A stretch of 38,556 nucleotides of DNA from Candidatus Altimarinota bacterium. Lineage in GTDB: Bacteria > Patescibacteriota > Gracilibacteria > BD1-5 > UBA6164. Below, in pieces: positions 23,532 through 38,556 of this stretch (the first letter of the stretch is position 1; each line of letters starts with the position of its first letter). Location: NCBI GenBank assembly GCA_028719245.1, contig JAQUKG010000004.1:1-38556 (forward strand), in the 5' to 3' direction. Position numbers and translations under genes: made by a program. The notes beneath the pieces are model-generated. The model was not told where the DNA came from. It made no database searches and was given only the letters and a program-made list of their open reading frames with translations.

Positions 23532-23547
23532 AGGATAGTGGGGGTAA

Positions 23548-25359
23548 TTAATAAACTTCTTTGTTGTAGCAAGTTTCACAATAAACAATTTCGGGTCTTT
23601 CAGGAGAATAAGTTGTTTTAATATCTTTTCCACATTTATCACACTTTCTATCATACAGCTTTCTTGAATTTCTTAGTTTCATCCTATCAATGTGTCTTTG
23701 ATCAGGATGTCTAGTTGGAATTGGTAGATGATGTTTGATATAAAATTCAAGTTCTTGGGATATAATTCTATAAGGTTTTTTTGTAATCTCACATTGTAAA
23801 ATTCATTTTAAAAGTTCTTTGATATTTTTCTCTGCAACTTCTTTTCATACTTTATTTTCATCATAATTTTCTATACTTTTTGGTTCATAAAATTCTCAAT
23901 CATATCAGTTTTGTTTTTCGTAGTCTGACCAGTTGAATCATTTATTTATGGCTTCTTCTTTTGAAAGTGAGAAATATTCTTCTGCTACTGTTTCATTGTA
24001 TCAAAAAGGACTAATTGAACTTGGGAAAAATTCTCACCATTCTCAAGTTTTTTGCATATGTTCTATTATTTTTGGAACTAATATTTCATATTCTTCCCTT
24101 GAGTATTGTTTATTTAGAATACAATATTTTTTTCTACTCAATCATATACAAGCAAAACAATAATCACAATATTCACATAAATCACAATAAATGTTGTATC
24201 ATCAATATACTGTTGCATAACAAAAAATATTATTATATCAAGCAACTCACTCTCATTCATAACATTTTTCAGCTTCAGCTAGATTATTCATATCATAACA
24301 ATCTTTTCAATCATTATCTAAATCATAAATATATTTACAATTTTCACCTCTAAAAAGATTAAAACAGCTTATACAATTTTCACATTCCTTTAAATAATCT
24401 CATTCACAATTTTCTATATCAATATTATTATCCAATTTATGTATTGATTTTCACCTAACTTTTAAGTATTCTTTATATAATATTTCTTCATATTTATAAA
24501 TATTTAAAATTTCTTTTTCATATTCTTCTTTGGTGTACTGAATATTTTTTATACAATAATTTTTATTTGTTAAATTTGAACATAAAATTATATTTGTGCA
24601 CGAAGTACAAGAAAAAGAGTAATACATATTTGAACAATTATTACAAGTATCAGAATAAAAAGTTTTGAAACATTTATTACAATTAACCAGTCAATAACAT
24701 AGCTCTGAATCTTTGATAAATAAACAATCTAGACAATTCTTTACAAAATAAGATTCTTTACAAAACATACAAGACTCAGCATATCAAACATTAAAACATA
24801 AATAAGAATTTTTAATATGCCAACAATGATTGCAATAATCACTATTTTCAAAATCAGTATAAAGATTATTAGATTTTCTAGGAACAGATAATAAGAGATT
24901 ATTAAATTGTTCAAAAAATCATTTATTAAAATCAAAATCTATTCAATAATCTAAGGGATTCCAAGTGTCAGAAACATAAGTATTTTGTTCAAACACTTTA
25001 TAAGGCTTATCTGGAGAATAAATAGAAATGATTTGTTTTCAAGTTAGATCACACTTTCTATGATAAAGTTTTCTTTCATTACGAAAAGCTAATCTTCTTT
25101 GTTGTCTGCAATCTGGACAAAGAGTTGGTGATGGGATTAGGTATTTTAATTTTCAGTTTCATAAATCTAAAACCCCTCCTAACCTCCCCTTGTCAGGGTA
25201 GGGATTGTTTAATTCTCCCCCTGATAAGGGGGAGTTAGAGGGGGTTTCAAAAATAGGAGAAACTTTCTCATAAAACTCTAAATCTTTATCTGTTATTTCA
25301 AACTCAGAATTACAATGTCTACAAACTTTAGTTTGCATAACTTTTTCATCTTGAAACAT
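23548..25359 (-). CDS. Cys-rich double zinc-ribbon family protein, copy F (duplicate of G)
   Basis: 603 residues. N-terminal CRHC; palindromic insertion (25170-25247); CPDCRQQRR; a CDLTGKQI segment; a YVSDTWNPLDYG segment in which the usual WW is lost; first Cys ladder; IKNIQYTKEEYE cap; second ladder with CDLCEYCDYCFACIG and LNKQYSREEYE cap; VPKIIEHM; a lengthened acidic linker (YEKQNGYDGEFYEPKS) and the C-terminal ribbon with CDKC and CETC. Copy G looks identical in sequence. They form one tandem unit on the minus strand ending at the terminator near 23421. Confidence 0.87.
25170..25247. repeat. GC-rich palindromic element inside gene F
   Basis: Outer arms match at 12 of 14 bases (AAACCCCTCCTAAC and GTTAGAGGGGGTTT); the inner hairpin is CTCCCCC-TGATAA-GGGGGAG. 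78 bp, so it adds 26 codons in frame, after EKVSPIF. Same site and shared core as the element in gene E. Confidence 0.84.
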
Positions 25360-25407
25360 AATAATAGTATTAAGTAATAAGTATTAAGTAAATTTTTCGA
25401 TTATCAA

Positions 25408-27219
25408 TTAATAAACTTCTTTGTTGTAGCAAGTTTCACAATAAACAATTTCGGGTCTTTCAGGAGAATAAGTTGTTTTAATATCTTTTCCACATTTATC
25501 ACACTTTCTATCATACAGCTTTCTTGAATTTCTTAGTTTCATCCTATCAATGTGTCTTTGATCAGGATGTCTAGTTGGAATTGGTAGATGATGTTTGATA
25601 TAAAATTCAAGTTCTTGGGATATAATTCTATAAGGTTTTTTTGTAATCTCACATTGTAAAATTCATTTTAAAAGTTCTTTGATATTTTTCTCTGCAACTT
25701 CTTTTCATACTTTATTTTCATCATAATTTTCTATACTTTTTGGTTCATAAAATTCTCAATCATATCAGTTTTGTTTTTCGTAGTCTGACCAGTTGAATCA
25801 TTTATTTATGGCTTCTTCTTTTGAAAGTGAGAAATATTCTTCTGCTACTGTTTCATTGTATCAAAAAGGACTAATTGAACTTGGGAAAAATTCTCACCAT
25901 TCTCAAGTTTTTTGCATATGTTCTATTATTTTTGGAACTAATATTTCATATTCTTCCCTTGAGTATTGTTTATTTAGAATACAATATTTTTTTCTACTCA
26001 ATCATATACAAGCAAAACAATAATCACAATATTCACATAAATCACAATAAATGTTGTATCATCAATATACTGTTGCATAACAAAAAATATTATTATATCA
26101 AGCAACTCACTCTCATTCATAACATTTTTCAGCTTCAGCTAGATTATTCATATCATAACAATCTTTTCAATCATTATCTAAATCATAAATATATTTACAA
26201 TTTTCACCTCTAAAAAGATTAAAACAGCTTATACAATTTTCACATTCCTTTAAATAATCTCATTCACAATTTTCTATATCAATATTATTATCCAATTTAT
26301 GTATTGATTTTCACCTAACTTTTAAGTATTCTTTATATAATATTTCTTCATATTTATAAATATTTAAAATTTCTTTTTCATATTCTTCTTTGGTGTACTG
26401 AATATTTTTTATACAATAATTTTTATTTGTTAAATTTGAACATAAAATTATATTTGTGCACGAAGTACAAGAAAAAGAGTAATACATATTTGAACAATTA
26501 TTACAAGTATCAGAATAAAAAGTTTTGAAACATTTATTACAATTAACCAGTCAATAACATAGCTCTGAATCTTTGATAAATAAACAATCTAGACAATTCT
26601 TTACAAAATAAGATTCTTTACAAAACATACAAGACTCAGCATATCAAACATTAAAACATAAATAAGAATTTTTAATATGCCAACAATGATTGCAATAATC
26701 ACTATTTTCAAAATCAGTATAAAGATTATTAGATTTTCTAGGAACAGATAATAAGAGATTATTAAATTGTTCAAAAAATCATTTATTAAAATCAAAATCT
26801 ATTCAATAATCTAAGGGATTCCAAGTGTCAGAAACATAAGTATTTTGTTCAAACACTTTATAAGGCTTATCTGGAGAATAAATAGAAATGATTTGTTTTC
26901 AAGTTAGATCACACTTTCTATGATAAAGTTTTCTTTCATTACGAAAAGCTAATCTTCTTTGTTGTCTGCAATCTGGACAAAGAGTTGGTGATGGGATTAG
27001 GTATTTTAATTTTCAGTTTCATAAATCTAAAACCCCTCCTAACCTCCCCTTGTCAGGGTAGGGATTGTTTAATTCTCCCCCTGATAAGGGGGAGTTAGAG
27101 GGGGTTTCAAAAATAGGAGAAACTTTCTCATAAAACTCTAAATCTTTATCTGTTATTTCAAACTCAGAATTACAATGTCTACAAACTTTAGTTTGCATAA
27201 CTTTTTCATCTTGAAACAT
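25408..27219 (-). CDS. Cys-rich double zinc-ribbon family protein, copy G (duplicate of F)
   Basis: 603 residues, apparently identical to copy F in protein and DNA. It is the promoter-proximal gene: an extended -10 (TGATATAAT) lies about 45 bp upstream, and the gene is head to head with the second TrmB-like regulator. Domain order is as for copy F. If the duplication is real, the cell makes a double dose of this paralogue. Confidence 0.87.
27030..27107. repeat. GC-rich palindromic element inside gene G
   Basis: Identical duplicate of the element at 25170-25247, carried along by the tandem duplication. Confidence 0.84.
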
Positions 27220-27263
27220 AATTTAAAATTAAAAAAATAATGTTTTTGTAATTACAAGAGAAT

Positions 27264-29257: not shown

Positions 29258-29324
29258 AAAACTAAAATACAAATTTTTTGATTTACTTAGTAGATTATTA
29301 TGAGAATTTTTAAAAAATAAAAAA

Positions 29325-29352
29325 TTTGAAATATCAAAAGTAATAGTATAAT
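29325..29352 (+). promoter_or_regulatory. Candidate promoter for the TPP-enzyme gene
   Basis: TTTGAA, 16 bp, TATAAT (29347-29352), about 36 bp upstream of the ATG. The duplication copies it, so the second gene keeps it (33026-33053). Confidence 0.4.
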
Positions 29353-29387
29353 AAAAATTGTTAATTTACTTTTTAAATCAATATATA

Positions 29388-31007
29388 ATGAAAGCTTCTG
29401 ATTTATTTATTCATATTTTAGAACAAAAATGAGTTAAAGTAATTTATTGAGTTCCTTGAGAAGAAAATCTTGATTTAATAGATTCACTTAGAAAATCTTG
29501 AAAAATTAAATTAATCCTTACTAGAAATGAACAAACTGCTGTTTTTATGGCAGCAACTTATTGAAGATTAACTTGAGAAGTTTGAGTTGCTATTGCAACT
29601 TTATGACCTTGAGCAACAAACATGGTAACTTGAGTTGCATTTGCACAATTAGGATGATTTCCAGTTATGGTTATAACTTGACAAAAACCAATTAAAAAAT
29701 CAAAGCAGTGACAGTTTCAAATAATTGATGTAGTTTCTATGATGAAACCAATTACAAAATATGCAACAACAATTATTAGTTGAAATAAAATTCCTCATAT
29801 ATTACATAATGCTTTTAAAATAGCTACATCTGAAAGACCTTGAGCCGTTGCAGTTGAACTTCCCGAAGATATTGCTTGAGAATTTGTTGAAAATCCAGAA
29901 CTAATTATTTCAAATGAAAAAGTTAGAAGACCTATTATAGATGAAAAATCTATTTTAATATTAAAAGAAGAATTACAAAAAGCAAAATCTCCAATAATTT
30001 TAATTTGAGCTTGAGCAAACAGAAAAAGAATTACAAAATATTTAACTGAATTTATTGTAAAATATAATATTCCATTTTTTACTTCTCAAATGTGAAAATG
30101 AGTTGTTAGTGAGGATTTAAAAGAATATCTTTGAACAGCAGCATTAACTAGTTGAGATTACATTCATAATGCTATAAAAGAAAGTGATTTAATTTTGTCA
30201 GTTTGATATGATCCGATTGAAAAGCCAACACATTTGATTTTAGAATGATGAACTAAAAATATTCATATAAATTTTTATGAATCAAATATTGATACTGTTT
30301 ATAATCCTTATATTGAAATTATTTGAGATATTTGAAATACATTTTGGCAATTATGTGAAACTGATATAGATAATTCAAATTGGGATTTTGAAAAAATATT
30401 TAAAATAAAACAAAAAAACATTAAATTATTGCAAGAAAATCTAGAAAATGAAGATATGTGAAATAATATAATTTGACCGAGACAACTTGTAAATGATGTT
30501 AGAAGTATTTTACAAAAAGACGATATAGTTGCTTTAGATAATTGATTATACAAAATATGGTTTGCTAGAAATTATATAACTTATTTTCCAAATACACTAC
30601 TTTTAGACAATGCTCTTGCTACAATGTGAGCTTGAGTTGCTTCTTGAATGGAAGCTAAAAGAATAAATCCACTAAAAAATGTTGTAGTTATAACTTGAGA
30701 TTGATGACTTGTGATGAATTTGTGAGATCTTGAAACTGTAGTTAGATTAAAACTTGATTTAACTATTATTGTTTTAAATAATTGAAGTTATTGAATGATA
30801 AAATGGAAGCAAACTGGTGCAAATATGCCTGAATGGGGGCTTGATTTTTGAAATCCAGATTTTGTAAAACTTGCTGAGAGTTTTGGTTGAATTTGATATA
30901 AAGTAGAAAATAAAAATGATTTTAAGAAAACTTTACAAAAAGCAAATGATGAAAAATGATTAAAAATAATTGATTTAAAATTTGAATATCCAAATGAAAT
31001 AAATTAA
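29388..31007 (+). CDS. Acetolactate synthase-like thiamine diphosphate enzyme, copy 1
   Basis: 539 residues. N-terminal pyrimidine-binding domain with VIYGVPGEENLDLIDSL and the catalytic glutamate E48 in LTRNEQTAVFMAATYGRLTG, then LGPGATNMVTG and VMVITGQKP. A central domain carries SERPGAVAVELPEDIA. The C-terminal pyrophosphate domain has VVITGDGGLVMNLGDLE (about 434-450; the glycines around the Asp are TGA) and LNNGSYGMIKW, the Mg-TPP motif. Closest to the large subunit of acetolactate synthase, but a relative (pyruvate oxidase, sulfopyruvate or other decarboxylase) is possible. No ilvN-like regulatory subunit or branched-chain pathway genes are seen. The RNHCP gene follows by 18 bp. Confidence 0.82.
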
Positions 31008-31025
31008 TAATTATGTGAAAATATT

Positions 31026-31337
31026 ATGCCTTTTAAAATGATAAATGAGAGTTTTCTTTGTGAAAGCTGTGGTAAAACTGTAAATAAACATCCAGAAGGA
31101 AGTGCTAGAAATCACTGTCCTTTTTGTTTATATTCTAAACATTTGGATCTTGAATTTCCTTGAGATAGAAAAAGCGATTGTTTTTGACTTATGAAACCGA
31201 TTTGAATTGATTATAAAAAAAATAAATGATGGATGATAAAACACTCTTGTCAAAAATGTGGAAAAGAAATATTAAATAAAGTTTCACCAGATGATAATTA
31301 TATTGATTTTGTAAGAGAAATAAATAAACTCAAATAG
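31026..31337 (+). CDS. RNHCP-type zinc-finger protein, copy 1
   Basis: 103 residues. Named signature RNHCPFC (residues 29-35) plus CESCGK at the N-terminus and CQKCGKE in the C-terminal half, giving three Cys/His pairs for metal binding. This matches the RNHCP domain family (function unknown) of small bacterial proteins. The start MPFKMINE is chosen because the earlier ATG at 31012 meets TAA after a few codons; the internal ATG of MINE is also possible. Stops with TAG. Likely cotranscribed with the TPP enzyme. Confidence 0.83.
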
Positions 31338-31350
31338 TCCAGGTATTATT

Positions 31351-31379
31351 TTGCTTTTAAGTAAATTTTATAGTATAGT
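31351..31379 (+). promoter_or_regulatory. Promoter for the giant gene, copy 1
   Basis: TTGCTT, 17 bp, TATAGT; the start would be about 23 nt before the ATG at 31409. Repeated at 35052-35080. Confidence 0.45.
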
Positions 31380-31408
31380 ATTTAAAATATTTCTTAATTT
31401 ATAAAAAT

Positions 31409-33052
31409 ATGGCATTAAGCGAAAATCCAGAATGAAAAGAAACAAAAGAAGCAGCTAATCAATCTAAATTTGATAATAAACCAAATCTAAATAGACAATT
31501 AGACGATTTTTGTCTGAGAAATTTTGAAAGTGATGAAACAAAATTTAGAGAAGATTTAAAAAAATTTCAAAGTGGAAATCCTGAAACCTATGAAGAATTT
31601 AAAACTTATATAAGACAAACTTCTCCGGAATTATTTTGATATGTTGAGTCAGAAGAATGAAAAAAAGATTTTCAAAACTCTATAAGTTCAAAATCAAATA
31701 AATTATTTATTAAAGCAGATATAAAAAGAAGAAATCTTTTAGGAGCTTTTAATAATGAATATACTTTAAATCCAGAACAAACCAAAAGAATAGAAGATGA
31801 ATTAGCCAAAAAAAATATAAAAGAATTAGATAAGCTAAAATCAAAAAGTAATTTAAGAAAGAAATTTGTAGATATTGTCTTTAGTAAAGATCCAAATAAT
31901 AAACCAACTATAAAAGATATAGATAAAGTTTTAAATCAATTAAAAGCAGATGTTAATTTTAATAACTTAACCTCAGATCAAAAAGAAGCTTTTGCTAGAC
32001 TTGCAAATCCTAGATTAGAAGTATTATTATCAGATGTAGAAGTTATTATACCATTACTTCTTACTCCAAAACAAAAGAAGGCATTTATAGCTTTATTTTT
32101 ACCAATAGTTTCCTTAAAACAGTTAGTTGATTGGGGAATATATAAAGAATCTGAAATTGTTCAAGCAATAGATGAAGAATTCAAAAATCGTTTGGAAACT
32201 GAATATGGTATACCAAAAACAGATTTATTAAAATATGTTTGAAAATGACTTTTTTTAAATTTGGAAGATATAGAAATTTCAACTCAAAATTTAGACAGAT
32301 TAGATAGTGAAGAACACTTAGATAAGCTTTTGTGAGAAGAATGAATTCAAAATTTTGTAAATGATTTAAAAGAATTTAGAAAAGAAACATCGGAAGATTA
32401 TAAAAAATCTTGACCTAAATGAATTGAAGAATTTAGAAAATTGCTTCCAACTTCAAAAGTTAACTGAGTAGAAAATTTTGATAAAAATTGATATATTGTA
32501 TTAGAATATAGAGATGTAATTAATTGAAAAGAAGTTAAACAAAAGAAAGTTTTAAGAATTGATAATACTTTTGATCATGAATTTAGTTATTCACTAGTTT
32601 CAAATTGATGAATTGTAAGTCCAAAATCTAGTAATACTTGAGCTACTAATTATTCTTATAAAGAATTTTTAGATTTAGTAAATGATAATTGATTCACTTC
32701 AATGAGCTGTTTTGACTATAATTGACTTTTGTGATATGTATCTAAACAAGAAGATCTATCTATAAATCAAGATGATTTTTGACTATCTGATTCCCAGGGT
32801 GTAAGAGATAAAAGAGATAAGCTAAATGCTGATTTATTGACAATAAAAGAAAGACTAAAAGCTGAAAATCCAACTTTAACAGATGCTGAAATAGAAACCC
32901 TAGAAGAATATACAAATTTAAAAAGTGAAGTTGACAAAGTAGAGGAAGAAGCCGGTAATTTGGAAGAAGATGATTTAGCTTCACTTATAAAGGAATTAGT
33001 ATGAGAATTTTTAAAAAATAAAAAATTTGAAATATCAAAAGTAATAGTATAA
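31409..33052 (+). pseudogene. Giant unknown gene, 5' fragment truncated by the duplication
   Basis: Identical to the first 530 codons of the full gene at 35110, up to ...SLIKEL, then the duplication junction fuses it to DNA from upstream of the TPP-enzyme gene. The chimera reads on for 17 codons (VGEFLKNKKFEISKVIV) to TAA, giving 547 residues. The stop lies within the promoter copy of the second TPP gene. It could still be expressed from its own promoter, but lacks more than half of the protein. Confidence 0.85.
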
Positions 33053-33053
33053 T
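33026..33053 (+). promoter_or_regulatory. Candidate promoter for the second TPP-enzyme gene
   Basis: Duplicate of 29325-29352 (TTTGAA, 16 bp, TATAAT), now lying over the end of the truncated giant gene. Confidence 0.4.
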
Positions 33054-33088
33054 AAAAATTGTTAATTTACTTTTTAAATCAATATATA

Positions 33089-34708
33089 ATGAAAGCTTCT
33101 GATTTATTTATTCATATTTTAGAACAAAAATGAGTTAAAGTAATTTATTGAGTTCCTTGAGAAGAAAATCTTGATTTAATAGATTCACTTAGAAAATCTT
33201 GAAAAATTAAATTAATCCTTACTAGAAATGAACAAACTGCTGTTTTTATGGCAGCAACTTATTGAAGATTAACTTGAGAAGTTTGAGTTGCTATTGCAAC
33301 TTTATGACCTTGAGCAACAAACATGGTAACTTGAGTTGCATTTGCACAATTAGGATGATTTCCAGTTATGGTTATAACTTGACAAAAACCAATTAAAAAA
33401 TCAAAGCAGTGACAGTTTCAAATAATTGATGTAGTTTCTATGATGAAACCAATTACAAAATATGCAACAACAATTATTAGTTGAAATAAAATTCCTCATA
33501 TATTACATAATGCTTTTAAAATAGCTACATCTGAAAGACCTTGAGCCGTTGCAGTTGAACTTCCCGAAGATATTGCTTGAGAATTTGTTGAAAATCCAGA
33601 ACTAATTATTTCAAATGAAAAAGTTAGAAGACCTATTATAGATGAAAAATCTATTTTAATATTAAAAGAAGAATTACAAAAAGCAAAATCTCCAATAATT
33701 TTAATTTGAGCTTGAGCAAACAGAAAAAGAATTACAAAATATTTAACTGAATTTATTGTAAAATATAATATTCCATTTTTTACTTCTCAAATGTGAAAAT
33801 GAGTTGTTAGTGAGGATTTAAAAGAATATCTTTGAACAGCAGCATTAACTAGTTGAGATTACATTCATAATGCTATAAAAGAAAGTGATTTAATTTTGTC
33901 AGTTTGATATGATCCGATTGAAAAGCCAACACATTTGATTTTAGAATGATGAACTAAAAATATTCATATAAATTTTTATGAATCAAATATTGATACTGTT
34001 TATAATCCTTATATTGAAATTATTTGAGATATTTGAAATACATTTTGGCAATTATGTGAAACTGATATAGATAATTCAAATTGGGATTTTGAAAAAATAT
34101 TTAAAATAAAACAAAAAAACATTAAATTATTGCAAGAAAATCTAGAAAATGAAGATATGTGAAATAATATAATTTGACCGAGACAACTTGTAAATGATGT
34201 TAGAAGTATTTTACAAAAAGACGATATAGTTGCTTTAGATAATTGATTATACAAAATATGGTTTGCTAGAAATTATATAACTTATTTTCCAAATACACTA
34301 CTTTTAGACAATGCTCTTGCTACAATGTGAGCTTGAGTTGCTTCTTGAATGGAAGCTAAAAGAATAAATCCACTAAAAAATGTTGTAGTTATAACTTGAG
34401 ATTGATGACTTGTGATGAATTTGTGAGATCTTGAAACTGTAGTTAGATTAAAACTTGATTTAACTATTATTGTTTTAAATAATTGAAGTTATTGAATGAT
34501 AAAATGGAAGCAAACTGGTGCAAATATGCCTGAATGGGGGCTTGATTTTTGAAATCCAGATTTTGTAAAACTTGCTGAGAGTTTTGGTTGAATTTGATAT
34601 AAAGTAGAAAATAAAAATGATTTTAAGAAAACTTTACAAAAAGCAAATGATGAAAAATGATTAAAAATAATTGATTTAAAATTTGAATATCCAAATGAAA
34701 TAAATTAA
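33089..34708 (+). CDS. Acetolactate synthase-like thiamine diphosphate enzyme, copy 2
   Basis: Appears identical to the copy at 29388-31007 in all stretches compared: 539 residues, catalytic Glu48, GDGG and LNNGSYG motifs. It carries its own promoter copy, so both could be expressed. Confidence 0.82.
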
Positions 34709-34726
34709 TAATTATGTGAAAATATT

Positions 34727-35038
34727 ATGCCTTTTAAAATGATAAATGAGAGTTTTCTTTGTGAAAGCTGTGGTAAAACTGTAAATAAACATCCAGAAGG
34801 AAGTGCTAGAAATCACTGTCCTTTTTGTTTATATTCTAAACATTTGGATCTTGAATTTCCTTGAGATAGAAAAAGCGATTGTTTTTGACTTATGAAACCG
34901 ATTTGAATTGATTATAAAAAAAATAAATGATGGATGATAAAACACTCTTGTCAAAAATGTGGAAAAGAAATATTAAATAAAGTTTCACCAGATGATAATT
35001 ATATTGATTTTGTAAGAGAAATAAATAAACTCAAATAG
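34727..35038 (+). CDS. RNHCP-type zinc-finger protein, copy 2
   Basis: Duplicate of 31026-31337, 103 residues, with the same CESCGK, RNHCPFC and CQKCGKE motifs and TAG stop. Confidence 0.83.
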
Positions 35039-35051
35039 TCCAGGTATTATT

Positions 35052-35080
35052 TTGCTTTTAAGTAAATTTTATAGTATAGT
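35052..35080 (+). promoter_or_regulatory. Promoter for the giant gene, copy 2
   Basis: Duplicate of 31351-31379 (TTGCTT, 17 bp, TATAGT), upstream of the full-length giant gene. Confidence 0.45.
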
Positions 35081-35109
35081 ATTTAAAATATTTCTTAATT
35101 TATAAAAAT

Positions 35110-38100
35110 ATGGCATTAAGCGAAAATCCAGAATGAAAAGAAACAAAAGAAGCAGCTAATCAATCTAAATTTGATAATAAACCAAATCTAAATAGACAAT
35201 TAGACGATTTTTGTCTGAGAAATTTTGAAAGTGATGAAACAAAATTTAGAGAAGATTTAAAAAAATTTCAAAGTGGAAATCCTGAAACCTATGAAGAATT
35301 TAAAACTTATATAAGACAAACTTCTCCGGAATTATTTTGATATGTTGAGTCAGAAGAATGAAAAAAAGATTTTCAAAACTCTATAAGTTCAAAATCAAAT
35401 AAATTATTTATTAAAGCAGATATAAAAAGAAGAAATCTTTTAGGAGCTTTTAATAATGAATATACTTTAAATCCAGAACAAACCAAAAGAATAGAAGATG
35501 AATTAGCCAAAAAAAATATAAAAGAATTAGATAAGCTAAAATCAAAAAGTAATTTAAGAAAGAAATTTGTAGATATTGTCTTTAGTAAAGATCCAAATAA
35601 TAAACCAACTATAAAAGATATAGATAAAGTTTTAAATCAATTAAAAGCAGATGTTAATTTTAATAACTTAACCTCAGATCAAAAAGAAGCTTTTGCTAGA
35701 CTTGCAAATCCTAGATTAGAAGTATTATTATCAGATGTAGAAGTTATTATACCATTACTTCTTACTCCAAAACAAAAGAAGGCATTTATAGCTTTATTTT
35801 TACCAATAGTTTCCTTAAAACAGTTAGTTGATTGGGGAATATATAAAGAATCTGAAATTGTTCAAGCAATAGATGAAGAATTCAAAAATCGTTTGGAAAC
35901 TGAATATGGTATACCAAAAACAGATTTATTAAAATATGTTTGAAAATGACTTTTTTTAAATTTGGAAGATATAGAAATTTCAACTCAAAATTTAGACAGA
36001 TTAGATAGTGAAGAACACTTAGATAAGCTTTTGTGAGAAGAATGAATTCAAAATTTTGTAAATGATTTAAAAGAATTTAGAAAAGAAACATCGGAAGATT
36101 ATAAAAAATCTTGACCTAAATGAATTGAAGAATTTAGAAAATTGCTTCCAACTTCAAAAGTTAACTGAGTAGAAAATTTTGATAAAAATTGATATATTGT
36201 ATTAGAATATAGAGATGTAATTAATTGAAAAGAAGTTAAACAAAAGAAAGTTTTAAGAATTGATAATACTTTTGATCATGAATTTAGTTATTCACTAGTT
36301 TCAAATTGATGAATTGTAAGTCCAAAATCTAGTAATACTTGAGCTACTAATTATTCTTATAAAGAATTTTTAGATTTAGTAAATGATAATTGATTCACTT
36401 CAATGAGCTGTTTTGACTATAATTGACTTTTGTGATATGTATCTAAACAAGAAGATCTATCTATAAATCAAGATGATTTTTGACTATCTGATTCCCAGGG
36501 TGTAAGAGATAAAAGAGATAAGCTAAATGCTGATTTATTGACAATAAAAGAAAGACTAAAAGCTGAAAATCCAACTTTAACAGATGCTGAAATAGAAACC
36601 CTAGAAGAATATACAAATTTAAAAAGTGAAGTTGACAAAGTAGAGGAAGAAGCCGGTAATTTGGAAGAAGATGATTTAGCTTCACTTATAAAGGAATTAG
36701 ATAGAATTGACCCTGATTGAGCACAATTTTGAGTTGATGAACAATGAAGAAATTCAGGTATTTGAAAATGAACTGTTTTAGAAATTCCAGAAAGTCAATG
36801 TGCTATAGTTGAATGAATAAATAATGAAGAGAGAAAAATTCAAATAAGTTATTATTGAAAAAAAGTTTCAATTTCATATGAAAGTTTTTTAGCTATTTTC
36901 AAAAAAAATAAAATTAAAAGAACTAAAAGATTTAATACTTTGGATGAATTTTTAGAATCAGCTAAAAGTAATAAAGAATTAGAAAATTGATTTAAAAATA
37001 TAAAAGTCAAGAATTGAAAATTAATTCCAGCTGACACTCCAGAGGATGTAGAAAAACCAACCGAGATAGTTTATTTTACAAGTAATGATAGTGAAGATTT
37101 AGTAAAAATAAATGATATATCCTGAGATAAAATTACATTTCAATATTGAGAAATAAAACAAGAAGAAAAGGAAGATAAAAAAACTCATAAGAAATCAAAG
37201 AAAACTAACTTACTTATAAAATGAGCTCAAGAATATACAGTTAGTTTAAATGATTTTTATGCTTTTTTAAAACAAAAAAAATTAACTCCAAATTCTACAT
37301 TAAATTCTAAAGATGAGAAGAGAAATTTACCAGAAGTAAAAGACGATCGCAGTAGAGGTTTTTGGACAAAAATCTTTGATAAATGATTTTCTATGCAGGA
37401 AATACTTCATTGATGAAAACTTATACTAGATTCTACTAAACATTATTTAGAAAAATGATCAGAAGTTCATTCTGCTAGGGTTGCATTATATTTTTGACAT
37501 ATTTTACCGGAAGAATTAAGATCTGAACTTGAACAAAAAGTTGAAGAAGAAGAAAAAGACTTAATGGATAAAGTAATGAAAAGTCTCTGAAAAGTTGATT
37601 CTAATATTGCAACAAGGAGAATATTATGATGGCTTAAATGTAAAGATACTCCAGAATATAAAAAAGAAGCTTGAATGATTTTTATGATGGAAAAATATTG
37701 AACTTTAACAGCAAAAGACCTTCATGTGGCTAAATGAAAATTTTTATGGTATACGGCTATGTGATGAAAAATAAGAGATCAAAATTACATAGATACTGAA
37801 GCAGAATGTAGAAGAGATAATATAGCTTTTACAGAAGAACAGTTAGTTTTTAACTTAATGAAAATTCAATGTAGACACAATAATTCATATTGAATTCATA
37901 GAAGATCTAGATTACATAAAGAATTTAAAGAAATAAGAGCAACTTGATTAGATTCTGAATATGATAAATGAATAAAAGATTGAAAAGATCAAAGTAATAT
38001 ACTTTGAAGAGTTGCTTGAGCTATTTCAGAATCTATGTGATGAACACATCCAAATGCTGCCTGATGGTTAGAAATGATAGTTGATAAAGGTTGACCTATT

Positions 38101-38556
38101 GAAGTAATGGAAAAAATACCTTTTATGTTGATGGCTTCTTGAGCTGCTTATAAACTTGATCAAAAAATAACAGATAAACTTAAGAACTTAACCGCTAAAT
38201 GAAAAACTATGCCAACTCTTAGGTGTATGAGATATGCAACAGATGTAACTCTTTATAATAATACAATAGTTGAAATATCAAGAGCCAGTTGAGATTGAGA
38301 AATGTTGGCATGGGCTGAGAGAATTAGAGATAACTCACTAAAAGCTAGAGATTTTGATAAAAGCTTTAATGAAAAAGAGTCTATACAAGATGCAATTAAA
38401 TTTTGGGATAAATATTGAAAACAATTAGCAAGAGCATTAAATATGCTTGATTGACAAGATAGAAATGAAAGATATGAAAAAACGGATAAAATAATTTTAT
38501 TAGAAGCAATAAAAGGGGAGGAATGAAATCCTATTCTAAAAGAATATTATAATCAT
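35110..38556 (+). CDS. Giant protein of unknown function (3' end outside window)
   Basis: 1,149 codons open to the window edge with TGA = Gly. No signal peptide (MALSENPE start). Residues 1-210 are charged and helical; a hydrophobic patch (LLLTPKQKKAFIALFLPIVS) lies near 215-235. Two beta-rich segments each lead into a 'F-D/L-F' tail: one near 365-440 (GYIVLEYRDVINGKEVKQKK then YKEFLDLVN) and one near 650-730 (EIVYFTSNDSEDLVKINDIS then YTVSLNDFYAFLKQKK), suggesting a repeated small beta-barrel module. Between lie acidic coiled segments. The C-terminal part is helical with many Trp and Gly (KFLWYTAMGGKIRDQNYID, THPNAAGWLEMIVDKG). I recognise no family; large proteins of this kind may be lineage-specific. 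Confidence 0.75.

What the first reader, a model, noticed from the sequence alone, without database searches (positions are those of the whole stretch)
35110..38556. Giant protein with no recognised family and repeated beta modules
At least 1,149 residues; two similar segments of beta strands each followed by a short aromatic helix (YKEFLDL and LNDFYAFL). In a reduced genome such a large gene is a costly investment and may act at the surface or in host interaction.
Basis: partly seen in the sequence, partly recalled or inferred. Interest (0 to 1): 0.5.

Follow-up and report, generated by a model that had tools for sequence, protein, structure and literature searches.

The report
Giant unknown protein shared across class
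A very large protein of no known family turns out to be an old gene shared by many lineages of one group of ultra-small bacteria, and in several of them it follows an unrecognised membrane protein in the same gene cluster, which suggests that it is the inner part of an undescribed membrane machine.

Summary
The open frame is real: 1149 codons (60 TGA read as glycine), cut by the contig end. Contig C108 overlaps that end (162 of 163 bases) and carries the stop, giving about 1339 aa. No curated family or PDB match was found. The protein is not private to this genome: 70 of 77 sampled genomes of its order have it, nearly always once. Its helical C-terminal domain is distantly homologous, through a profile chain with shuffled controls, to giants of roughly 800-2000 aa in 22 other families of the class; the phylum samples gave no convincing match outside it. 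In several of those families the giant directly follows a polytopic membrane protein (14 of 15 loci where that gene is held). It lacks a recognisable signal peptide or membrane segment, so a surface role is unlikely. Best reading: cytosolic scaffold of a class-specific membrane apparatus, perhaps tied to the VirB6 reported missing in Gracilibacteria; function is inferred. Residues 1-530 lie in an exact 3701-base tandem duplication or assembly artefact.

The parts
35110..38556 (+). giant gene, 1149 codons in the window (code 25), continues on contig C108 to about 1339 aa
   Evidence: relatives
35149..36144 (+). N-terminal helical region (residues 14-345), less conserved
   Evidence: model; alignment
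36193..36384 (+). beta module 1 plus helix YKEFLDLV (residues 362-425)
36493..36708 (+). long helices, coiled-coil-like (residues 462-533)
36772..36906 (+). beta module 2 plus helix YESFLAIF (residues 555-599)
37096..37278 (+). beta module 3 plus helix LNDFYAFL (residues 663-723)
37360..38556 (+). start of the conserved all-helical C-terminal domain (residues 751 onward), the part shared across the class
31409..33052 (+). truncated copy: first 530 residues of the giant plus 17 further residues read past the duplication junction
29299..32999 (+). first unit of an exact 3701-base tandem duplication
33000..36700 (+). second unit of the exact 3701-base tandem duplication

Best explanation
The gene encodes the window lineage's member of a class-wide family of giant soluble proteins. 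Shown: nearly always one copy in 70 of 77 sampled genomes of the order; no recognisable signal peptide or membrane segment; a helical N-terminal half, three small beta modules and a well-predicted all-helical C-terminal domain without a confident PDB match; distant homology of that domain to giants in 22 other families of the class; in eight of those families examined, mostly a gene cluster of small membrane protein, one or two further proteins, polytopic membrane protein, giant. Inferred: the giant sits on the inner face of the membrane as the scaffold or docking subunit of an apparatus built on the polytopic protein, which has the layout of a VirB6/TrbL channel; the beta modules and the helical domain are binding surfaces. 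In the window's family the cluster has come apart, the membrane protein being elsewhere in the genome, but the giant is kept.
For: Order distribution: 70 of 77 sampled genomes by the A4 profile, 22 of these being the profile's own members; 61 of the same 77 by the window's sequence alone. hhalign A4-A5 97.5%, E 8.7e-12, 400 columns; A5-A6 E 2.3e-8; A6-A7 E 1.2e-36; A5-A7 E 4e-9; A4-A6 and A4-A7 E 0.003 and 0.005 on the same region. Controls: A4-A5 score 114.6 against a maximum of 23.3 for 30 column shuffles and 38.9 for 30 block shuffles. A7 profile: 156 of 308 class genomes in 22 families, 4 being its own members, and 26 of 360 phylum genomes, all 26 in the class. Gene cluster: polytopic protein directly upstream, same strand, in 14 of 15 loci outside f1, f2 and f7 where that gene is held (17 loci fetched), with 8-15 hydrophobic segments in the 13 counted. 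A related protein stands divergently beside the giant in 3 of 11 f2 loci, all of genus g24. Hydropathy: no segment in nearly all giants. C-terminal model pLDDT 83.5, pTM 0.79.
Against: In f1, the window's own family, the giant mostly stands alone on its strand and the polytopic protein lies elsewhere in the five f1 genomes tested. In f7 the small membrane protein is next to it (13 of 17 loci) but the polytopic one is not. In the other 8 of 11 f2 loci no polytopic neighbour was seen among those printed. The polytopic protein matches no VirB6/TrbL model: Pfam 0 of 11; NCBIfam one sub-threshold conjugal-transfer hit in 1 of 11. A VirB4-type ATPase is not near the giant in any of 13 genomes with a match, though 10 of those have it on another contig. 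The f10 locus L127 has soluble neighbours instead. One of 30 block-shuffled controls reached E 0.0038, so the direct A4-A6 and A4-A7 links would not stand alone; the link runs through A5. One of the four weak f7 hits (G553) lies in a frame that looks like UvrC and was chance.
Confidence: 0.45

Rival explanations
1. Effector reading: the giant is a substrate exported through the membrane apparatus; the conserved C-terminal domain docks it and the variable N-terminal part acts on the partner cell.
For: Fast divergence and a size range of roughly 800-2000 aa; N-terminal parts differ between families, and 6 of 7 long f7 members carry HExxH at a similar place, with a weak IrrE/M78 Pfam hit in one; gene directly behind a channel-like membrane protein.
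Against: Nearly always single and near universal in the order, whereas effectors are usually patchy and multiple (recalled); no HExxH in the window's protein and none at a shared place in its order; adjacency to housekeeping genes kept within families.
Confidence: 0.2
2. Envelope or division reading: a cytosolic organiser of cell division or envelope growth, not part of a secretion apparatus.
For: Neighbours that I read as FtsZ, FtsA, RseP and DnaA in f7 and RseP and SecD in f1; in two genomes of the same genus a MurL-like and a PBP2/FtsI-like gene. All these names are mine from the sequences, not from a call.
Against: The ThrS/RecF loci in other families show no division gene that I recognised and keep the polytopic protein instead; neighbours near the origin are conserved in any case.
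Confidence: 0.2
3. Surface or host-binding protein.
For: Large size and beta modules; host-associated lifestyle of the group (recalled).
Against: No signal peptide or membrane anchor by hydropathy; no adhesin family match.
Confidence: 0.07
4. Mobile or phage-derived gene, for example a tape-measure or virion protein.
For: Large helical protein; weak Foldseek names of tape-measure proteins.
Against: No PHROG, phage-record or viral-contig match; best viral fold match E 0.4; fixed chromosomal place within families.
Confidence: 0.02

Closest known systems
Patescibacterial type IV secretion system (VirB4/VirB3/VirB6/TrsD), PMC12102498
   Same: The giant's usual neighbour in other families is a polytopic membrane protein with a signal-peptide-like start, like VirB6 in layout; f7 loci lie near dnaA, as the paper reports for T4SS genes in several classes. 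The paper finds VirB6 absent in class Gracilibacteria and suggests extreme divergence (abstract, passages, sections 12 and 14 seen; supplements not).
   Different: No VirB6/TrbL model matches the neighbour; the VirB4-type gene lies elsewhere; no T4SS component of this size or architecture is known to me. Whether the paper's class equals the tool's class is not established.
FESNov clade-specific novel families, PMC10849945
   Same: Catalogue of unknown families that mark whole clades, including Patescibacteria (passages seen).
   Different: I could not look up whether this family is in it; nothing in the passages seen describes it.
Small SH3/Tudor-like barrels (Spindlin)
   Same: Beta-barrel layout around module 2: Z 5.0-5.2 over 57-62 residues of model residues 523-606.
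   Different: Weak Z, 12-15% identity, no shared sequence family.

Membership tests
Known housekeeping or curated protein family | Pfam or NCBIfam match above curated cut-off | tested here: not met
   the best hits are far below cut-off, including NF011397 (19.2 of 234 bits) for relative L039
Surface protein or adhesin | signal peptide or membrane anchor | tested here: not met
   hydropathy scan only: P0001 none (best 1.57 against 1.6), 1 of 24 (A1), 0 of 22 (A4); no dedicated signal predictor on hand
Type IV secretion system component | gene next to virB4 | tested here: inconclusive
   PF19044, taken as a VirB4 marker from recall, matches in 13 of 14 genomes, never near the giant; 3 on the same contig at 44 kb or more, 10 on another contig
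Type IV secretion system component | sequence match to a T4SS family | tested here: not met
   giants: no T4SS family among the hits
VirB6/TrbL (for the membrane neighbour) | Pfam or NCBIfam VirB6/TrbL-type match | tested here: not met
   0 of 11 in Pfam, where a VirB2 pilin model at E 7.8 was the only conjugation-type name; 1 of 11 a sub-threshold conjugal-transfer hit, E 0.0045, 16.3 of 90 bits
VirB6/TrbL (for the membrane neighbour) | polytopic inner-membrane protein | tested here: met
   8-15 hydrophobic segments in the 13 loci scanned, hydropathy only
M78/IrrE metalloprotease | HExxH zinc motif | tested here: not met
   absent in P0001; present in 6 of 7 long f7 relatives at a similar place
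Solved fold | confident structural match in PDB | tested here: inconclusive
   no Foldseek E below 1e-3; best Z 7.9 on a coiled coil and 5.3 on the C-terminal domain

The most novel reading that the evidence does not exclude
The giant and its neighbours form an undescribed, class-specific inner-membrane machine, with the polytopic protein as the highly diverged VirB6 that a survey reports missing in Gracilibacteria and the giant as its cytosolic scaffold or loading platform. It would be the way these epibiotic bacteria exchange material with their hosts.
Probability: 0.25. Interest if true: 0.8.

Novelty: categorically new. Interest (0 to 1): 0.6.

Why it matters
A protein of 1300 residues kept by nearly a whole order, and by many families of its class, in reduced genomes points to a central unknown process. 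The link to a channel-like membrane protein in other families, and the report that VirB6 is not found in Gracilibacteria, turn an anonymous orphan into a testable candidate for a class-defining membrane apparatus. The family also gives a marker gene and a concrete target for structure work.

Tried and rejected
Whole-protein fold search gave only generic coiled-coil and weak barrel matches. The C-terminal model gave low-probability HEAT/ARM names and tape-measure names; all Foldseek E-values were above 0.1 and were not used as evidence. Phage and viral origin disfavoured; no anti-phage defence family. The first genome-contig scan with the single protein found no relative; a subset alignment found 16. 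The phylum scan with A1 found only the own genome and one weak match in G366, not followed. Of the four weak f7 hits, that in G553 sits in a UvrC-like frame and was dropped; G553 has a real relative on another contig. The A5 phylum scan gave one weak match outside the class, G374, E 4e-4, 65 positions, judged chance. An N-terminal motif seen in the A5 consensus was tested with a regular expression and did not hold (1 of 11). SMC and other PDB sequence hits for the membrane protein profile had E 0.037 or more and were discarded. A viral-contig scan for the duplicated 603-aa protein found nothing. Paper searches for a description of the family (6 searches of the held library) returned none; this is not proof of absence in print. 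PMC6744442 was seen in two passages, PMC8406219 in the listing only. Families f5, f11, f13, f15, f16 and f19 appear in no hit list that I saw; the tool does not list all misses.

Full report
1. The object. The window is the whole of contig C4 of a 1.35 Mb genome in 113 contigs, 90.7% complete. Under code 25 the frame 35110-38556 is open for 1149 codons, 60 of them TGA read as glycine. It ends because the contig ends. C108 (3087 bases) begins with 163 bases that match the contig end at 162 positions; its frame runs on to a stop, giving 1095 + 244 = 1339 residues. After the stop C108 has a prepilin-like gene on the other strand and a 458-aa gene. Two genomes of the same genus, L066 and L068, have the same order after their giant (the 458-aa gene compared by eye). 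The join is therefore well supported but not sequenced across. Gene names in this report (RseP, HD, Tgt, RlmN, SecD, DnaA, ThrS, RecF, FtsZ, FtsA, dUTPase, MurL, UvrC and so on) are my reading of the sequences, from recall; no call assigned them. The calls only show which genes are alike between loci.

2. The duplication. 29299-32999 and 33000-36700 are identical over 3701 bases in tandem. The junction shows one base of shared sequence and no longer homology. The first unit ends inside the giant, so 31409-33052 reads as the first 530 residues plus 17 others. A second exact pair, 23546-25362 and 25406-27222, 1817 bases, lies in the same contig. Real recent duplication and assembly artefact cannot be told apart here. 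The full-length gene is intact in either case. Upstream the window has an acetolactate-synthase-like ORF and a 103-aa ORF; two of three same-genus relatives (L066, L068) have RseP there, while L067 has the Tgt-HD-RseP block on the other side of its giant.

3. The protein. No Pfam or NCBIfam match over a cut-off, no PHROG, PADLOC or PDB sequence match. One NCBIfam hit of relative L039, E 6e-4 but 19.2 bits against a cut-off of 234, was taken as chance. The AlphaFold2 model from 18 sequences has mean pLDDT 75 and pTM 0.40: helical N-terminal half, beta modules at 362-425, 555-599 and 663-723, long helices at 462-533, a poorly predicted stretch at 739-780, then a helical domain near pLDDT 90. The C-terminal domain of relative L039, complete at its end, was folded alone: pLDDT 83.5, pTM 0.79, nearly all helix. 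No Foldseek PDB match reached E 1e-3 and the best second-look Z was 5.3 over 51 residues. A weak match does not prove a new fold. Module 2 lines up with Tudor barrels of Spindlin at Z about 5, a common arrangement at most. A hydropathy scan (mean of 19 residues, threshold 1.6) finds no segment in the window protein, whose best value is 1.57, and finds one in 1 of 24 of A1, 0 of 22 of A4, 0 of 11 of A5, 1 of 7 of A6 and 0 of 4 of A7.

4. Distribution in the order. A single-sequence search found it in 61 of 99 genomes, the own included: 61 of 77 of the order and none of the 22 same-class genomes of other orders. A profile of 22 sequences (A4) found 74 of 353 class genomes: 46 of 48 in family f1, 23 of 27 in f2, 1 of 2 in f3, and 4 weak ones outside the order, all in f7. 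Twenty-two of the 70 are members of the profile itself. The misses inside the order are G046, G030, G065, G054, G075, G069 and G051. Eight genomes show two matches; most are fragments or a split frame (in G000 the truncated copy), but G041 has two nearly full-length copies on two contigs. Relatives with names are mostly MAGs called Candidatus Gracilibacteria, with the complete genome 28_42_T64; a few bear broader names.

5. The class-wide family. Of the four weak f7 hits, L081 aligns collinearly at two places, L079 and L080 at the same anchor, and the G553 hit lies in a UvrC-like frame and is chance. The L081 protein, P0002, matches in 14 of 79 genomes, its own included. An alignment of 11 such f7 proteins (A5, 745-867 aa) compared with A4 gives 97.5% probability, E 8.7e-12, 400 columns. 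A5 leads to longer f7 proteins (A6, 7 sequences of 1149-1674 aa; E 2.3e-8) and to f10, f18 and f20 proteins (A7, 4 sequences of 1025-1324 aa; A6-A7 E 1.2e-36; A5-A7 E 4e-9). A4 meets A6 and A7 directly at E 0.003 and 0.005 on the same anchor region. Controls: A4 against 30 column-shuffled copies each of A5, A6 and A7 gave maximum scores 23.3, 22.3 and 19.6; 15-column block shuffles gave 38.9, 26.8 and 24.4; reversed profiles 15.7, 19.6 and 18.7; observed 114.6, 42.0 and 37.6. One of the 30 block-shuffled A5 copies reached E 0.0038, so an E-value near 0.004 is not proof by itself, and the chain rests on A4-A5. The membrane protein profile A9, a negative control, scored 19.8. With A7, 156 of 308 class genomes match, in 22 families and none of the hits in the window's order; 4 of the 156 are profile members. 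In the phylum sample 26 of 360 match, all in the class; with A5, 19 of 379, one of them outside the class and weak. Of the 36 same-class genomes of other orders listed, 34 are hit by A5 or A7; G094 and G359 are not. The giant is not always single there: G368 has a short and a long form on two contigs, and G615 and G535 have two long matches each.

6. Gene context. In f1, 15 of the 16 named loci were analysed (L052, a fragment, was left out): the next gene is a prepilin-like protein on the other strand in 14, RlmN follows in 14 and SecD in 13; RseP is found upstream on the other strand in 12. Flanking genes are mostly on the other strand. In f7 (17 loci) a small membrane protein precedes the giant on the same strand in 13 and dUTPase follows in 11; RseP, DnaA, ThrS, FtsZ and FtsA lie close by in many. 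In 17 loci of f6, f9, f10, f18, f20, f21, f22 and f23 the usual order is small membrane protein, about 500-aa protein, often a further protein of up to about 490 aa, polytopic membrane protein of 670-909 aa, giant, then in many a 450-900-aa protein, ThrS and RecF. The polytopic protein is directly upstream in 14; two loci (L167, L168) are cut by contig ends and one (L127, f10) has soluble proteins instead. In f2 a related membrane protein stands divergently beside the giant in 3 of 11 loci, all of one genus; a fourth of that genus (L062) has a gene of like length that I did not read. With the f2 protein as query, a relative was found in 12 of 12 genomes tested, weakly in f7, and in the window's genome on contig C19.

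7. What it does. The shared gene cluster, the lack of membrane segments and the conserved helical domain favour a cytosolic partner of the polytopic protein. That protein looks like VirB6/TrbL in layout only: Pfam finds no such model, NCBIfam finds one sub-threshold conjugal-transfer hit in 1 of 11 members. PF19044 ATPases, taken as VirB4 markers, are present in 13 of 14 genomes but not beside the giant. PMC12102498 reports that VirB6 is scarce in Microgenomatia and absent in Gracilibacteria and that T4SS genes are often near dnaA (passages, sections 12 and 14). That fits but does not prove the link; the classes may not be the same set. The mechanism is an inference at about 0.45; the family and its spread are much firmer.

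8. Further signs. Giants end in alanine in 19 of 59 deduplicated sequences against 24 of 493 neighbouring ORFs of 150-999 codons (Fisher p 2e-9). Split by group: 13 of 37 against 7 of 294 in the window's order (p 2e-9), 6 of 22 against 31 of 353 in the others, with more neighbours counted (p 0.014). Endings such as LAA recall ClpXP-type degrons (recalled), which would mean regulated turnover. The sequences share ancestry, so the p-values are too small. Six of seven long f7 members have HExxH at a similar place, with a sub-threshold IrrE/M78 hit in one member.

9. Novelty. No description was found in six searches of the held library. The FESNov catalogue (PMC10849945, passages seen) may contain parts of the family; I could not check. 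I rate it categorically new as a protein family and gene cluster; if the VirB6 link is right it would become a new variant of a type IV secretion system.

Noticed in passing
29299-36700: Exact 3701-base tandem duplication carrying an acetolactate-synthase-like ORF, a 103-aa ORF and the first 530 codons of the giant; real or assembly artefact.
   Followed up: partly
23546-27222: Second exact duplication, 1817 bases, of a 603-aa cysteine-rich protein (sub-threshold CxxC-x17-CxxC NCBIfam hit); a 574-aa ORF on C19 (L159) looks alike by eye, and shorter repeats elsewhere in the window suggest a multi-copy family.
   Followed up: partly
L119, L118, L120, L121, L122, L125 (f7 long members): HExxH zinc motif at a similar place in six long relatives, absent in the window's protein; possible protease domain in one lineage.
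   Followed up: partly
C-termini of the family: Terminal alanine in 19 of 59 giants against 24 of 493 neighbours; possible degradation signal.
   Followed up: partly
L126:3-11161, L163-L175: Conserved gene cluster (small membrane protein, 500-aa, often a further protein, polytopic membrane protein, giant, 450-900-aa) beside ThrS and RecF; the members tested have no curated family.
   Followed up: partly
L127:5057-12723: In f10 the giant's neighbours are three soluble proteins of 158, 428 and 930 aa; two of them begin with similar short N-terminal sequences (SFAxNRL).
   Followed up: no
f1 loci L039-L053: Prepilin-like gene convergent to the giant in 14 of 15 f1 loci; the one from L066 has a sub-threshold PilV match.
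   Followed up: partly
G041 (C75, C76); G368, G615, G535: Genomes with two giant matches on different contigs: nearly full-length twice in G041, a short and a long form in G368, two long ones in G615 and G535.
   Followed up: no
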